In this document: positions 38,176-44,234 of the stretch, in pieces | How the letters are laid out: every line of letters starts with the position of its first letter | How positions within the stretch are numbered: the stretch's first letter is position 1 | DNA from: Dermatophagoides farinae | Taxonomy: Eukaryota > Arthropoda > Arachnida > Sarcoptiformes > Pyroglyphidae | Length of the DNA stretch: 64,000 bases | NCBI RefSeq assembly: GCF_024713945.1 | Contig: NC_134685.1 | Coordinates: 3,157,001 to 3,221,000, forward strand | Direction of reading: 5' to 3' | Translations under genes and position numbers: made by a program | The notes under the pieces: generated by a model | What the model saw: only the letters and a program-made list of their open reading frames with translations | Database searches by the model: none | What the model was told of the DNA's origin: nothing

Positions 38176-38535
38176 TCAATTGGCAAGAAATTCTGCCTTA
38201 TCCGCTTCAATCTGTTTTGCTTGTGATGGTACAGTAGTTTTACCAGTGATTGGACGACGAAATAATAGTATATGTGGTTCTGGATCATGTATCATATAAT
38301 GTATCCAACCTTGACTTTGTGTTACGCCCAATGCACGCCATTCAGCTTCAGTCATTAGATGTGTTTTTGGAATTAATTTTGCATATTCTTTAGGCAGAAC
38401 AACATGTCTATGGAACAATAGAAAACAAAAATTCCAATTAGATTAGATTAAAAAAAACATCATTGCATCATACCTATATTCATATTTATCATCATAATAA
38501 CGTTCTGAATAGTAGAAATCTTTATTAGACGACAT
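38176..38535 (-). CDS. Cks: Cyclin-dependent kinase regulatory subunit Cks1
   Basis: Two exons, 38535-38474 and 38407-38176, encode 97 residues. Cks proteins bind CDK-cyclin complexes and use a phosphate-binding pocket to help multisite phosphorylation and ubiquitin-ligase targeting. The sequence is near-canonical: [20 protein letters not shown] from exon 1, then [32 protein letters not shown] and [23 protein letters not shown] is the hinge segment involved in the beta-exchanged dimer. The intron splits the arginine codon in phase 2, with a GTATGA donor. A C-terminal tail of about 20 residues after FRRP is variable in the family. It lies next to a B-type cyclin on the same strand, and its upstream region shares a 15-mer with the cyclin B/KIF23 spacer. 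Confidence 0.98.
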
Positions 38536-39213
38536 GATTGATGGATGATTCGTACAAATAAATTGGTAATTGAAAATCAATCGAAAAAAAAAATTTCACA
38601 AGATTAAATTTTTTGTTTCGATCGAAAAATTTTTTTTTTCAAAGCTTGAGTAAAAAACAAATCAAACACTAAAATTCGAATGGCGCGTAAACGTTATGAG
38701 CTGCCCATAATACACACACACACGCTTAAATTGGCCGTTTATGAAAACACATTTGTGTGGTAGTAGCAATTTTTTTTTAGTGAGAAAAAAAAACATCCAC
38801 CACCACACTACATACATTGATGCTTCTAACTACTACTACTACTACTACTTGTATATATTCACGTTTAAAATTTGAAAATTTTCCTGCACCATTCAGAAAT
38901 GACGTTACAAAAATTGAAAATTTGATCAAATTATCATGATTTAAAAATTAAATTTTTACGAAAATTGAATTTTATTGAATTGAAAAATAATAAATTGCTA
39001 TAAAAACGGAAAAAATGATGATAATGATGATGATAAGACGTTCAATAAGCGATGTTAATATTTCATTGTCACACAAATGTTTTTCCATATCATCAAAAAA
39101 AAAGATGATTAATCAATCATCATCATCATAATGTTTAAAGTAGAGTGATGATGATGAAAAATTCAAATACAAAAATGAAATGGAAAAAAAATCGAGATAA
39201 TTATATACGTTGT
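38536..39213 (-). promoter_or_regulatory. Cks1 upstream region and cyclin B 3' UTR
   Basis: A 678-bp spacer between two minus-strand genes. On the Cks1 side it holds TTCGAA (38675-38680) next to GGCGCG (38682-38687), resembling a CDE/CHR cell-cycle module, and the 15-mer AAATTGGCCGTTTAT (38728-38742). On the cyclin side, TTTATT at 38971-38976 (AATAAA on the minus strand) is about 240 bases past the cyclin stop and could be its poly(A) signal. Confidence 0.5.
38728..38742 (-). promoter_or_regulatory. Shared CCAAT + Myb-type 15-mer upstream of Cks1
   Basis: On the minus strand the site reads ATAAACGGCCAATTT: an AAACGG Myb-type core joined to a CCAAT box. It lies about 193 to 207 bases upstream of the Cks1 ATG. 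The identical 15 bases recur at 41427-41441 in the cyclin B/KIF23 spacer. NF-Y boxes and Myb/MuvB sites are known features of G2/M promoters; the role here is inferred. Confidence 0.55.
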
Positions 39214-40567
39214 TTACATAGCCAATTTTTTGATGATACGCATAGAATTTGGTGATAGATTACTTATGCTCATACATTTGGATGATGAATATTTTTTACG
39301 GCAATTCTGTATTCAAAAAAAAAAAAGATTTCAACATGGATTAGTGGAAAAAAATGACCAGAAAGAAATTACCTGATGTTTAGAAGTTTCGGATGAAATA
39401 ATCAAACGACATAGATAGCCAGAATGTTTACGAACATCATGAATTGTATATCCAGTATAATATTCAATAGTTGGTGTCCAAATCGATGTTTCCATTGGAT
39501 CGTTCGGTTTTTCGTCATTATTATTATTCAATTCAAGTGCTACATATAGTGAAGTTGCAGCAATCAATGATGGTAACCATTGTGCACATTGATAATCAAT
39601 AACGGATAATTCACAAAAAAATTTACCCATCATATGTACACGTGAATCAGCCTGTGCGGCTTTTGAACCACGTCGTAGAAAATACAATGGTGATGGTCCA
39701 CTTAATTCGAAATTTGTCACTTTAAGTATACGAATTTCCATTCGTAATATGTCACGTTTTGTATAAAGATTATCACAAATGATGACAAAATCTTTGATTT
39801 CTGGATAAAAAATTTCTTCATATTTGGCTGCAACAAATATTGCCGTAGCACCCAATAATTGTAGTTGATTTTTTTCCACCGATTCACGTGCTAAAACACG
39901 ATCAACAATCGATATGGCCAAATAAAGTGTTTCAGGTGACAAATGAAAACTACGATGTATACCATTGATCCAATTGACAAGAACAGCACGCATATTTGGT
40001 GTGACAACATTATGAATTGAAAGAAAATTTGTTTCCAATGCCAATGATTTCTATTTCAAAAAAAGAAAGAAAAAGAAAACGATAGAACAAAATCATTAAT
40101 TTGATCATTTAAAATTGGTGAGAGAAAAAAAAATCCAACTCTACCTCAAGCTGATGAAGATATTGATAGATATCGGGAGCATAATCACTCAATAAAAAAC
40201 AATTGGATTCATTGTCAATATTTTCAATTTTTGGTTTAACTGGCTCTTGTCGTTTTGGTTGTTGTTGCTGTTGTTTTTGTTCAATCTTATCCGTACAGGA
40301 AGCGGAGGGTAATAAAGATGAAACCATACGTTTTTGTTGGATACCACCGACACCACCACCACCACCACAACCACCACCAGCAGCAACAACAGCACCACTG
40401 ATACGTGATTTGAATACGGGAATTTTTGAACGAAAATTCAGACCATTTTCTTGTTCACTGATATGTCGAGATAATTTTAGATTAGCAATTTGATCATTGA
40501 TTGTATTCGTTGGTTTTAATGGCAATGGAACAGCAGCATTTGTTCGTGCTCGAAGTGGTTGAATCAT
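39214..40567 (-). CDS. CycB: G2/mitotic-specific cyclin B
   Basis: Three exons: 40567-40145, 40050-39373 and 39306-39214, encoding 397 residues, all joined in phase 0. Cyclin B activates CDK1 for entry into mitosis. The cyclin fold begins at DIYQYLHQLE; exon 2 carries NMRAVLVNWI (MRAIL-type CDK-binding helix), ETLYLAISIVDR, KYEEIFYPEI and the B-type signature PLYFLRRGSKA. The last exon gives KKYSSSKCMSIS, matching the conserved NKY..SK segment of B cyclins. The N-terminus (1-141) is Gly- and Gln-rich. I find no RxxL destruction box or KEN box in it. An acceptor (TTTTCAG, ending at 40597) lies just upstream of the ATG and the frame stays open back to it, so the true N-terminus could start in an undetected upstream exon. 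Confidence 0.95.
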
Positions 40568-41574
40568 TTTTTTTATGTTACGAATCAAATGAAAGTCTGA
40601 AAATTAAGAAAATCAAATTGATCAAAATGATAAAGACGAATTCGTTTGCTATAAATCAAACGTGAAAGAATAGAATTTTTTTTTCTCGAAAACAAAATAA
40701 AACGTAGTAAAAACTTGTATTTGTGAATTTTCAAATGTTGATCATAGATCAAATGATGATGATGAGATCTAAATAAATAATAAAAAAAACTCTCAAATAT
40801 ATTGGTGGTCTATGAAATCAACAATGAAATACAATGGTGATGATGACATTAATTTATAGACAAAACAAAATCGTTAAATGATCAAAAAAAATGTAGAAAA
40901 ATTGAATTGAATTTGGTATTTATTTTCCGTTTCGATTTCAATCAACATGCTTGATGGTGAACACACAGCAGATGAGAAAAACTCAAGTTAAATGCCAACT
41001 TAATGCCAAACGAATATGATAACCGATGACAATCGAAATGAAGCGAACAAAAAAAAAAAATTTAAACAATTCCAACGGTCATTCATGATTGGTTTGTTTG
41101 ATTCGTAGAAGGTGGGGCCTAAAAATTTCACTTTGTTTCGGGAATTTTTTTTCGAATTATTTCGTAAATATTTCCCATTTTCAATATTTCATCATCATTT
41201 TTTTTTGATCCAAAAATTCATAATTCATAAATCAATTTTTGATGCAAATAGATTCTTGTATTTTGAATAAATATCTTTCTCTCGATAAATTTGTCAATCA
41301 ACATTTATTATGATCTAAAATATTTATTATGATCGAACGAAAAAAAAATTTGAATTTTAGATGAAAAAATTTATTCCAAAACGTTGTTTATGACGGGTCC
41401 ATAAAATTTGTTCAAACGGTCGTTTCAAATTGGCCGTTTATTTGAATTTTTTTTTAGAATTTCACTGTCAGCGTGCATGTCAGTTGTGTTCGTTTGTTTT
41501 TATTGTATGTCTCTCTATCTGTTAATTTTGATTTATTTTTTGGTCATTTTTCTTTTTGAAAATCAAAATCAACA
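40568..41574. promoter_or_regulatory. Divergent cyclin B / KIF23 promoter region
   Basis: A 1007-bp head-to-head spacer. It contains CAACGG (41073-41078) with ATTGG, an inverted CCAAT, at 41088-41092; AAACGG (41414-41419); the 15-mer AAATTGGCCGTTTAT (41427-41441); and TTTGAA or its reverse TTCAAA at 41411-41416, 41424-41429 and 41441-41446. These match the CCAAT, Myb-site and CHR elements known from G2/M promoters. The dense group at 41411-41446 is about 130 to 160 bases before the KIF23 ATG. The pair at 41073-41092 is nearer to cyclin B. Confidence 0.6.
41427..41441 (+). promoter_or_regulatory. Shared CCAAT + Myb-type 15-mer upstream of KIF23
   Basis: Identical over 15 bases to the site upstream of Cks1 (38728-38742). 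It is directly followed by a CHR-type TTTGAA and preceded by TTCAAA and AAACGG within 16 bases. It sits about 135 bases before the KIF23 start codon. Confidence 0.55.
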
Positions 41575-44234
41575 ATGGTAAATCATCGCAGGTATGATGA
41601 ATAAATTTTTTTTTATTATATTTTAAATTAATCTTTATGTTACAATCAATAAATCCTTTTAGTAATTCGGCTAAAAAACCACCGCCACCAACGAAACCAA
41701 AACCAAAAATGGATACGAATGAAAAAGATCCATTACAAGTTTTTTGTCGTTTACGTCCATTAAAAAATCTTACCGATACAATTGTTGTGCATAAGATTGA
41801 TGATCATCTTTTGCAAATATCACCACCTGGACAGCAAAAACAATTGTATAAATTCAAAAAAGTTTTCGATCCACAATTCGATCAACATTCAGTGTTCAAA
41901 CAAACAGCTTTTCCATTAGTCAAAGATCTGATTGATGGTCATAACGGGCTTTTATTCTCTTATGGTGTTACATCTTCAGGAAAAACCTATACAATAACCG
42001 GTACACCACAAAATCCTGGCATTATACCACGAACATTGGATACCATATTCAATACATTGAATAAGAATGGCTTGCAAAATATTCGTTTTGGTTTTAAACC
42101 AAATAATCAAAATGGTTTTGAAATCATTTCCACACCGGATGCTATTTTGAAAATTCAAAATGAAGCAATCTATTCGACACCAAGTAATAATAAAACACCA
42201 AGAAAACGTGATGCATATGATTGGGAAAATCGTGTGCAAGAAGAAATGTTCGTTAAAGACATAAATTGCGATAATAAATATGCTGTATTCGTGTCATATG
42301 TTGAAGTTTATAATAATTACATTTATGATCTACTTGGTGATCATCAATCATCAGAAATGAATAAATGTTCGAAACGTATTGTTGAAGATTGCCAAAAACG
42401 TTATTATGTTCAAGGTGCTAAAGAAATTGAAGTGAAAAGTTCACAAGAAGCATTCGATCTTTGTATCAAAGGTATGAAACGTCGTCGTATTGGCACAACC
42501 AAATTGAATAATGAATCTAGCCGATCACATTCAGTATTCAATATTCGTTTAGTACAAGCACCATTAGATAATGACGGCGTAGAAGTTATTGATGATGATA
42601 ATCTGATACATATCAGTCAATTATCGATTGTTGATTTGGCTGGTTGTGAACGTACTTCGAGAACTCAAGCTACAGGAAGTCGCTTACGTGAAGCAAGTAA
42701 CATTAATAATTCATTATTAACATTACGACATTGTTTTGATGTATTACGTGAGAATCAGAAATTGAACACGAATAAAATGGTACCATATCGTGATAATAAA
42801 TTGACACATATGTTTAAAAGTTATTTTGAAGGTGATGGTAAAGTTGAAATGGTCATCTGCATTAATCCTGGTCTTGAAGATTATGATGAAACATTGCAGG
42901 TATGTAAATTCGGTGAAGTATCGCAAGATTTGGTTACCAATCGTTCAACACCTATCAAACGTACACCATTACGACCAATCAATAATTTTTTCATTGCATC
43001 ATCAATCAATATTGGACCACCATTACCGGATAAATATGTTGAAGATCCATCGGATGATAAAACCCTTATGAATTGGATTATGACATTAGAGAAACGGATG
43101 GAAAATCATGAACAAAATAGTTTGATTATTGATGAATATCAAAAAAATGTCAGACAAAATATTTCTGAATTAAATCGTGATAATACATTGATTGAACAAC
43201 AAAACGCTGTATTGAAAATGGATTTAGTAGCACGTGAAAATCAACTGCTCGAATATGAGAATAGATTCATTCATATGAAACATGAATATTCAGAAACAGT
43301 CAATCGAATGAAACTTCAAATTGAAGAATTGCAGCAAGAATTGTCCACCACTAATCATCGATTAGCTACAACTGAAATCGAGAAATCAGATCTTCATAAT
43401 GAATTTCGTCACTATAAACGATCTATTAAAGAAAGTTGGAAAACCGAATTTAGACGTTTACAAAAACATTTCATACAAAAAGTTCATGAAGCTGAATTAG
43501 AAATGGAAAAGAAAATGGCTACAAATCAAGAAAAATTGGAATTATTACGAACAATAATTAATAATGATGATGATTTAGAATTCATTAGACCATCGTGGAT
43601 GTCACCATTGAAAGTAAAACAAGATACAGGAAATGAACCGATGACAACAGCAACAGGCAATAATATTCAATCACCACCTGTTATAAATCCACGCCATCAA
43701 CGATCATTGAGCACGGATGATGCAAAATGGATTGAACATCGTCCACCAGGTACATTGGATCTTGGTACCGTATTTCAGCCAAATATACAATCAAAACGTA
43801 AGAAATCTGTTACCAATTTAAAAACATCAGATTTTGTTGGAAAAAAAGATGAAATTGCCACAAAATATTCATTGACACATCATCAGGCAACCAACACAGG
43901 TGATGTTGAAACCAATGTCTATAAAGGTGATGTTATACCATCATTAACCGGTGGTTCACAAGTCATATTTAATGATGTTGAAAAATTGACTCAATATCCG
44001 TGTATGTCTGATTCCTTAAATATAACGACGAGAAAAAATCGAAAACGTTTAGCTGAAATGTTTGAACGTATGACAACTACTACTACTGCCACCGCATCAT
44101 CGTCGACAAGATCAACACCAACAACAGTAACATCGACGATTGTAAATTCAAATGCAGAAGGAATGGAATTTTTGCCATCAACATCATCAAATCAACGTAA
44201 TAATGGAACACCAACAAAACGTAAAAAATTCTAA
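41575..44234 (+). CDS. KIF23: Kinesin-6 KIF23 / MKLP1 (Pavarotti, ZEN-4)
   Basis: Exon 1 (41575-41591, 17 nt) joins exon 2 (41663-44234) in phase 2, giving 862 residues. MKLP1 is the motor half of centralspindlin, which bundles midzone microtubules and drives cytokinesis. The N-terminal motor has the nucleotide loop GVTSSGKT (107-114), SYVEVYNNYIYDLL, NNESSRSHSVFNI (switch I) and DLAGCERT (switch II). The long insert between the P-loop and the YNNYIYDLL segment is typical of kinesin-6. A coiled coil follows (roughly 480-640). The tail has the RSLSTDDAKWIEHRPPG and YKGDV segments that mark MKLP1 rather than MKLP2. The protein ends in a basic KRKKF. The P-loop has Ser where most kinesins have the first Gly of GSGKT. 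It is divergent from cyclin B over a shared spacer. Confidence 0.96.

What the first reader, a model, noticed from the sequence alone, without database searches (positions are those of the whole stretch)
38728..41446. Identical 15-mer with CCAAT and Myb core in both spacers of the cell-cycle cluster
AAATTGGCCGTTTAT occurs at 38728-38742 (upstream of Cks1) and 41427-41441 (between cyclin B and KIF23). Read on the other strand it is AAACGG joined to CCAAT. With uniform bases a 15-base match between spacers of this size is expected by chance only about once in a thousand tries. Its parts are the known NF-Y and Myb/MuvB sites of G2/M promoters, and a CHR-type TTTGAA follows directly at the KIF23 copy. 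It may be a mite version of the G2/M control module.
Basis: partly seen in the sequence, partly recalled or inferred. Interest (0 to 1): 0.75.

Follow-up and report, generated by a model that had tools for sequence, protein, structure and literature searches.

The report
Myb-site mitotic promoters in a mite
The repeated 15-letter word is real and carries a Myb-type binding site of a kind found upstream of 7 of the 11 mitosis genes whose starts could be placed in this mite genome, so it looks like the mite form of a known animal mitosis switch rather than a new module.

Summary
The 15-mer AAATTGGCCGTTTAT is at both stated places, its only two exact copies in the 62.4-Mb genome. It is not a repeat and not a general mitotic module: none of its 26 one-mismatch relatives lies beside a gene I recognised as mitotic. 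What generalises is its Myb half. AACGG[C/T]C occurs in 7 of 11 mitotic promoters (Cks1, cyclin B, KIF23, KIF11, KIF18-like, survivin, PRC1) against 5 of 197 non-coding background pieces, or 7 of 15 if four kinesins with unclear starts count as misses. It ties for first among 7-mers, beyond 60 null sets. Of four mitotic promoters read after the pattern was fixed, two carry it (P 0.005; 0.008 with cyclin E added). The genome has a three-repeat Myb. CCAAT and CHR words are not enriched, though CCAAT lies within 16 bases of the Myb site in 5 of 7 genes. Unsupervised motif search failed. Factor binding and timing are inferred.

The parts
38728..38742 (-). 15-mer copy 1 in Cks1 orientation, ATAAACGGCCAATTT: Myb-type AACGGCC overlapping CCAAT, the only AACGGYC site in the 700 bases read upstream of Cks1
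41427..41441 (+). 15-mer copy 2, upstream of KIF23: GGCCGTT (41432-41438) and ATTGG (41429-41433)
41415..41433 (-). CCAATTTGAAACGACCGTT: CCAAT-N7-GACCGTT, sharing its CCAAT with 15-mer copy 2
41074..41092 (-). CCAATCATGAATGACCGTT: CCAAT-N7-GACCGTT, about 510 bases before the cyclin B ATG
41411..41416 (+). TTCAAA (CHR-type), overlapping AACGGTC as TTCAAACGG
41424..41429 (+). TTCAAA (CHR-type)
41441..41446 (+). TTTGAA (CHR-type) directly after 15-mer copy 2
38675..38686 (-). GCGCCATTCGAA: E2F/CDE-like word plus CHR-type word in the Cks1 promoter; the same arrangement (GCGCCATTTAAA) lies upstream of a second kinesin-6-like gene (L072)
38889..38899 (-). TTTCTGAATGG: a second shared word (TTTMTGAAYGG) of four mitotic promoters
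38176..38535 (-). Cks1 gene (two coding exons; start codon at 38535)
   Evidence: PF01111, exon 2; first exon read by me
39331..40567 (-). Cyclin B gene (coding exons; start codon at 40567)
   Evidence: PF00134, PF02984 on the 39331-40044 frame; start codon read by me
41575..44234 (+). KIF23/MKLP1 gene (short first coding exon from 41575, main exon to 44234)
   Evidence: PF00225, PF16540; first exon read by me

Best explanation
The two copies are Myb-type binding sites (AACGGYC) overlapping a CCAAT box in G2/M promoters: that of Cks1 and the shared cyclin B-KIF23 spacer, which holds three such sites. The likely mechanism is that the mite's three-repeat Myb, probably as Myb-MuvB, binds AACGGYC 77-514 bases before the start codon and switches mitotic genes on in G2/M, helped by NF-Y at nearby CCAAT boxes and by MuvB/LIN54 at TTYRAA words. 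Shown here: the words, their positions, the enrichment of the Myb-type site in mitotic promoters, and a three-repeat Myb gene. Inferred: occupancy, cell-cycle timing, NF-Y and MuvB roles. The exact 15-base identity is probably one arrangement of these parts plus chance in the A+T-rich flanks.
For: AACGGYC in 7 of 11 mitotic promoters vs 5 of 197 background pieces, Fisher P 8e-8, discovery genes included; 7 of 15 if four kinesin loci with unclear starts count as misses, P 1.2e-6. Tied first of the 7-mers with at most one two-fold-degenerate position that occur in at least 4 of the 11 (P 3e-9; best of 60 null sets 1.9e-5). The bare core AACGG: 10 of 11 vs 64 of 197 (P 1.7e-4). Fresh genes: survivin and PRC1 yes, cyclin A and cyclin B3-like no, 2 of 4, P 0.0046; dinucleotide shuffles reach 2 in 12 of 1,000. 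0 of 46 other window pieces carry it. CCAAT within 16 bases in 5 of 7 genes, P 4e-4 with the distance chosen afterwards. Three-repeat Myb gene at C10. Human KIF23 is bound by DREAM/MMB at its CHR and by NF-Y; Drosophila Myb-bound promoters are enriched in YAACKG and its direct activated targets are enriched in mitotic genes.
Against: Four of 11 mitotic promoters lack AACGGYC (cyclin A, cyclin B3-like, KIF14-like, second kinesin-6-like), as do the 700 bases before the frames of four further kinesin loci (L065, L069, L071, L073). The 15-mer has A where the strong Myb site has C/T. Unsupervised EM motif finding failed: in 11 leave-one-out runs a Myb-like word was chosen in 2, mostly G+C-rich words otherwise; no left-out gene was predicted (all 11 P above 0.15); 4 of 164 null sets reached the observed score. 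CCAAT and CHR words are not enriched. A KIF21-like locus, not thought mitotic, has ATTGG, AACGGTC and GGCCGTT upstream (L063:81-102), and the cyclin E-like locus has GACCGTT about 1.1 kb before its coding frame (L089:463). Several gene labels are mine by eye.
Confidence: 0.6

Rival explanations
1. The 15-base identity is a coincidence: two unrelated A+T-rich promoters each hold a common Myb/CCAAT core and the flanks match by chance. The sites may still be used, but the 15-mer is not a unit.
For: 8 of 1,793 random pairs of pieces align as well. The whole genome has only these 2 exact copies, so no other mitotic promoter has the word. The Myb sites of the other mitotic promoters have different flanks.
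Against: The Myb core itself is enriched, and survivin has the related ATGAACGGTC (ATRAACGGYC in 3 of 11 mitotic vs 0 of 197 background).
Confidence: 0.5
2. The genes are governed mainly by E2F/DREAM through CDE/CHR-type elements; the Myb-type words are minor.
For: GCGCCA in 4 of 11 mitotic promoters vs 10 of 197 (P 0.003). GCGCC-N1-4-TTYRAA in 2 of 11 (Cks1, second kinesin-6-like) vs 3 of 197, one of the 3 being that same kinesin-6 promoter. The unsupervised search preferred E2F-like G+C-rich words. The C. elegans DRM hybrid E2F/LIN-54 motif is a known parallel.
Against: Cyclin B, KIF23, KIF11, survivin and PRC1 have no GCGCCA in the stretch read, and AACGGYC is more discriminating. The cyclin E-like promoter has E2F-like words and no AACGGYC in the 700 bases used.
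Confidence: 0.17
3. Remnant of a small local duplication or gene conversion between neighbouring spacers.
For: The two copies are only 2.7 kb apart and are the only ones in the genome.
Against: The ungapped match ends at the 15 bases, and the word falls exactly on two binding-site cores.
Confidence: 0.05

Closest known systems
Myb-MuvB (MMB)/dREAM-controlled mitotic promoters of Drosophila
   Same: Mitotic genes with Myb-type AACGG words near the gene start; YAACKG is enriched in Drosophila Myb-bound promoters (PMC7172335, passages).
   Different: Here the preferred word is AACGGYC and the base before it is A or G in 4 of 7 genes; binding and MuvB are untested; CCAAT lies within 16 bases of the site in 5 of 7 genes.
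Vertebrate CCAAT (NF-Y) + CHR G2/M promoters, e.g. human KIF23
   Same: KIF23 with CCAAT and TTTGAA near the start; human KIF23 is bound by DREAM/MMB at its CHR and by NFYA independently of the CHR (PMC3641139, passages).
   Different: In this mite CCAAT and CHR words are not enriched over background; the discriminating word is the Myb site.
C. elegans DRM hybrid E2F/LIN-54 motif and human CDE/CHR
   Same: GCGCCATTYRAA in Cks1 and a second kinesin-6-like gene resembles an E2F word next to a CHR (PMC3093354, passages).
   Different: Found in only 2 of 11 mitotic promoters and not part of the 15-mer; nematodes have no animal-type Myb (PMC7225089, passages), the mite does.
Plant MSA element (recalled, no call)
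   Same: AACGG-type core in G2/M promoters bound by three-repeat Myb proteins.
   Different: Not tested here; flanks differ.

Membership tests
Myb-controlled G2/M promoter (MMB type) | Myb-type word enriched in mitotic promoters over background | tested here: met
   7 of 11 vs 5 of 197, or 7 of 15; tied top 7-mer against null; 2 of 4 fresh mitotic genes
Myb-controlled G2/M promoter (MMB type) | Strong Myb site YAACGG in the 15-mer itself | tested here: not met
   15-mer has AAACGG. A pyrimidine at that position is present at cyclin B, the KIF18-like gene and KIF11 only. YAACGG as the strong site: PMC6022509, one passage
Myb-controlled G2/M promoter (MMB type) | Animal three-repeat Myb gene in the genome | tested here: met
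   Three Myb repeats at C10:2953385-2953878, read in L094; repeats 2-3 match c-Myb 2.5e-58 and B-Myb 1.1e-48
Myb-controlled G2/M promoter (MMB type) | CHR word TTYRAA beside the Myb site | tested here: inconclusive
   Within 7 bases in 5 of 7 genes; 52 bases away at the Cks1 copy and 173 at survivin; random 7-base spots in these promoters have one within 10 bases 26% of the time
Myb-controlled G2/M promoter (MMB type) | MuvB core genes (LIN54 and others) present | not tested
Myb-controlled G2/M promoter (MMB type) | G2/M expression and Myb occupancy | not testable with these tools
   No expression or ChIP data
NF-Y (CCAAT) G2/M promoter | CCAAT enriched in mitotic promoters | tested here: not met
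   9 of 11 vs 145 of 197, P 0.42
NF-Y (CCAAT) G2/M promoter | CCAAT close to the Myb site | tested here: met
   Within 16 bases in 5 of 7 genes; random spots 12%; P 4e-4, distance chosen afterwards. Among other AACGGYC sites in the loci held, 5 of 22
Dispersed repeat family | Many copies scattered genome-wide | tested here: not met
   2 exact copies; 28 with at most 1 mismatch vs 11 for the reversed pattern
CDE/CHR (E2F-LIN54) element | E2F-type word next to a CHR in the finding | tested here: not met
   Not in either 15-mer copy; a separate GCGCCATTCGAA lies nearer Cks1

The most novel reading that the evidence does not exclude
Mites drive G2/M genes through a phased composite in which an NF-Y box and a Myb site are read together: CCAAT, 7 bases, GACCGTT in cyclin B, KIF23 and the KIF18-like kinesin, and 9 bases (about one helical turn) further apart in PRC1. 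The 15-mer would be the fused form with no spacer. In this lineage Myb, rather than the CHR, would be the anchoring site of the mitotic programme.
Probability: 0.15. Interest if true: 0.55.

Novelty: new member of a known kind. Interest (0 to 1): 0.37.

Why it matters
To my knowledge (recalled) G2/M promoter logic has been worked out mainly in vertebrates, flies and worms. A compact mite genome in which one Myb word ties for the best 7-mer separating mitotic promoters gives a chelicerate data point on whether the ancestral arthropod programme relied on Myb sites rather than CHR/CDE sites, and it makes a simple prediction (AACGGYC near mitotic genes) that any annotated mite genome and RNA data could test. 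It also gives a concrete case of three neighbouring mitotic genes whose spacers carry the same sites.

Tried and rejected
15-mer as a repeat or general module: rejected (2 exact copies). Of the 26 one-mismatch places, 7 are coding by codon score and 13 lie inside one of the four longest open frames shown for their locus (some of these frames look spurious). 9 keep both cores (ATTGGCCGTT), and none lies beside a gene that I recognised as mitotic from ORFs within 1.5 kb (recognition by eye; one search looked closer at 9 of the 26). Core AACGGCCAAT: 220 places vs 100 for the reversed pattern. Only 30 of the 220 were fetched, in contig order (C1 and the start of C2); 17 of those 30 are coding by codon score, so this gave no promoter test.

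CCAAT-N7-GACCGTT: exactly 4 in the genome, 3 of them at mitotic genes, but the pattern was written from those three, so this is circular as a test; with at most one mismatch there are 164 places vs 108 for the reversed pattern. The loose pattern CCAAT-N0-20-ACCGTT shows little enrichment (581 vs 528).

Unsupervised EM motif search: TGACCGTTTA-like came out at width 10 on all 11 promoters, but widths 8 and 12 gave G+C-rich E2F-like words. Of 11 leave-one-out runs 2 gave Myb-like words; no left-out gene was predicted, and 4 of 164 null sets scored at least as high. I rely instead on k-mer counting with null sets.

Promoters dropped before the counts: four kinesin loci (L065, L069, L071, L073) were left out of the 11 because their gene starts were unclear; two of them (L069, L073) had been in the first pair comparison. 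None has AACGGYC in the 700 bases before its frame, and with them the count is 7 of 15. Cyclin E (L089) was fetched as an unnamed top cyclin hit and set aside as a G1/S control only after I read it; with it the fresh count is 2 of 5, P 0.008. SMC genes, PLK1 and a second PRC1-like gene were located but not read.

One search used wrong coordinates for minus-strand loci; one search replaces it. NF-Y and CHR enrichment was tested and not found. Conservation in other mites could not be tested: the genome tool says this genome has no relatives there, and the other collections hold phages, plasmids, E. coli, viral, metagenome and prokaryote contigs. Literature: one search for mite and Myb/DREAM/CHR terms listed 8 of 3,236 papers, none of them on mites; this is weak evidence of absence.
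Full report
The word. AAATTGGCCGTTTAT is at 38728-38742 and 41427-41441, and a whole-genome search finds only these two exact copies in 62,435,336 bases. Assembly size and a 7.12-Mb contig fit the 62.43-Mb Dermatophagoides farinae genome with N50 7.11 Mb (PMC11074847, outline); an earlier D. farinae assembly is 58.77 Mb (PMC8487952, outline). The species name is my inference. The copies lie about 195 bases before the Cks1 ATG and 135 bases before the KIF23 ATG.

Chance. Among 1,793 random pairs of 600-base non-coding pieces, 8 aligned at least as well as the Cks1 and KIF23 promoters do through the 15-mer, one of them through the seed word used to fetch the loci. So the match alone is only mildly surprising (about 0.4% per pair), less so after allowing for the many spacers a reader scans.

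Not a module by itself. With at most one mismatch there are 28 places (12 + 16) against 11 for the reversed pattern. Of the 26 others, 7 are coding by codon score, and none sits beside a gene I recognised as mitotic. One non-coding relative (L011, AAATTGGCGGTTTAT) lies in a divergent spacer with further Myb-like words, next to a gene I could not name; it has no AACGGYC.

What is shared by mitotic promoters. I read kinesin loci, three cyclin loci, a single-BIR survivin-like gene and PRC1. KIF18-like and KIF11 identities come from PDB matches (1.6e-100 and 2.1e-135). For L072 the best chain is named only kinesin-like protein (I recall it as ZEN-4) and the next is KIF20A. Survivin and PRC1 rest on Pfam matches. 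The labels cyclin A, cyclin B3, cyclin E, KIF14-like and KIF21-like are mine by eye. The KIF18-like promoter repeats the cyclin B arrangement CCAAT-N7-GACCGTT, and the KIF23 spacer has it too, using the 15-mer's CCAAT. The common denominator is AACGGYC.

Test of AACGGYC. It was fixed on five genes: Cks1, cyclin B, KIF23, KIF11 and KIF18-like. In the window it occurs 5 times, 4 of them in this cluster's spacers and 1 inside a coding frame. Over 11 mitotic promoters 7 carry it, against 5 of 197 background pieces (Fisher P 8e-8). The five discovery genes are in that count. Four more kinesin loci with unclear starts were left out; none carries it in the 700 bases before its frame, and with them it is 7 of 15 (P 1.2e-6). 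Two promoters already in hand when the pattern was fixed (KIF14-like, second kinesin-6-like) lack it. Of four mitotic promoters read afterwards, survivin (77 bases before the ATG) and PRC1 (250 bases) have it, and cyclin A and the cyclin B3-like gene do not. P of at least 2 of 4 is 0.0046 from the background rate, and dinucleotide shuffles reach 2 in 12 of 1,000. A fifth fresh locus turned out to be cyclin E-like (G1/S): E2F-like words, no AACGGYC in the 700 bases used, one GACCGTT about 1.1 kb before its coding frame. With it the result is 2 of 5, P 0.008. Counting 7-mers with at most one two-fold-degenerate position that occur in at least 4 of the 11, AACGGYC ties for first (with AACGGKC) at P 3e-9, while the best word in 60 null sets reached 1.9e-5. 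Background pieces come from loci fetched with the core and one-mismatch patterns (seed positions removed), from the rest of the window (46 pieces, 0 hits) and from kinesin loci (40 pieces, 2 hits; some of these kinesins may be mitotic). They are non-coding by codon score, not proven promoters.

Results against. EM motif discovery did not recover the site reliably and failed leave-one-out. CCAAT and TTTGAA do not separate mitotic promoters from background. The 15-mer's own Myb core has A before AACGG, while the strong site is YAACGG (PMC6022509, one passage); among the seven genes only cyclin B, KIF18-like and KIF11 have the pyrimidine. A KIF21-like locus has the same words far upstream.

Arrangement. 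CCAAT lies within 16 bases of the Myb site in 5 of 7 genes (overlapping it in Cks1 and KIF23; 7 bases away in cyclin B, KIF23 and KIF18-like; 16 in PRC1; none in the KIF11 and survivin stretches), against 12% for random spots (P 4e-4, distance chosen after looking). Among other AACGGYC sites in the loci held, 5 of 22 have it. CCAAT-N7-GACCGTT has 4 exact places genome-wide, a count that cannot serve as a test because the pattern came from three of them.

Factors. The genome holds three adjacent Myb repeats at C10:2953385-2953878. Read directly, repeats 2-3 match c-Myb (2.5e-58) and B-Myb (1.1e-48). A second place (C9:1054882-1055151) shows two adjacent repeats (not read). MuvB and NF-Y genes were not searched.

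Reading. Human KIF23 needs its CHR and is bound by DREAM and MMB, with NF-Y on CCAAT (PMC3641139, passages). LIN54 reads TTYRAA (PMC4974476, passages). B-Myb and NF-Y motifs co-occur in human B-Myb binding peaks (PMC11414393, passages). Drosophila Myb-bound promoters are enriched in YAACKG, and its direct activated targets are enriched in mitotic genes (PMC7172335, passages). The mite promoters fit this known kind, with the Myb word the most discriminating part. Occupancy and timing are inferred. The 15-mer is best seen as two promoters that happen to share one compact arrangement of a Myb word and a CCAAT box.

Noticed in passing
window 38176-44234: Three mitotic genes (Cks1, cyclin B, KIF23) lie in a row within about 6 kb; cyclin B and KIF23 are divergent and share one spacer with three AACGGYC sites.
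   Followed up: partly
window 38889-38899 (-); also in the promoters of KIF11 (L059), KIF18-like (L061) and survivin (L092): A second shared word TTTMTGAAYGG in 4 of 11 mitotic promoters and 0 of 197 background pieces; found by eye, untested on fresh genes.
   Followed up: partly
window 38675-38686 (-); L072 upstream of its kinesin start: GCGCCATTYRAA, an E2F/CDE-like word joined to a CHR-type word, in the Cks1 and second kinesin-6-like promoters.
   Followed up: partly
L011 (C2:2758305): Divergent spacer with AAATTGGCGGTTTAT, TTTGACGGTTGA and AACCGTTGAAA beside an unidentified gene; a candidate mitotic gene by its promoter, though it has no AACGGYC.
   Followed up: no
L063:81-102: ATTGG, AACGGTC and GGCCGTT clustered about 1.4 kb upstream of a KIF21-like motor exon; either a counter-example or a neighbouring gene's promoter.
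   Followed up: no
C9:1054882-1055151 and C10:2953385-2953878: Two places with adjacent Myb repeats (two and three repeats); the mite may have two Myb genes. Only the C10 place was read.
   Followed up: partly
   Followed up: no
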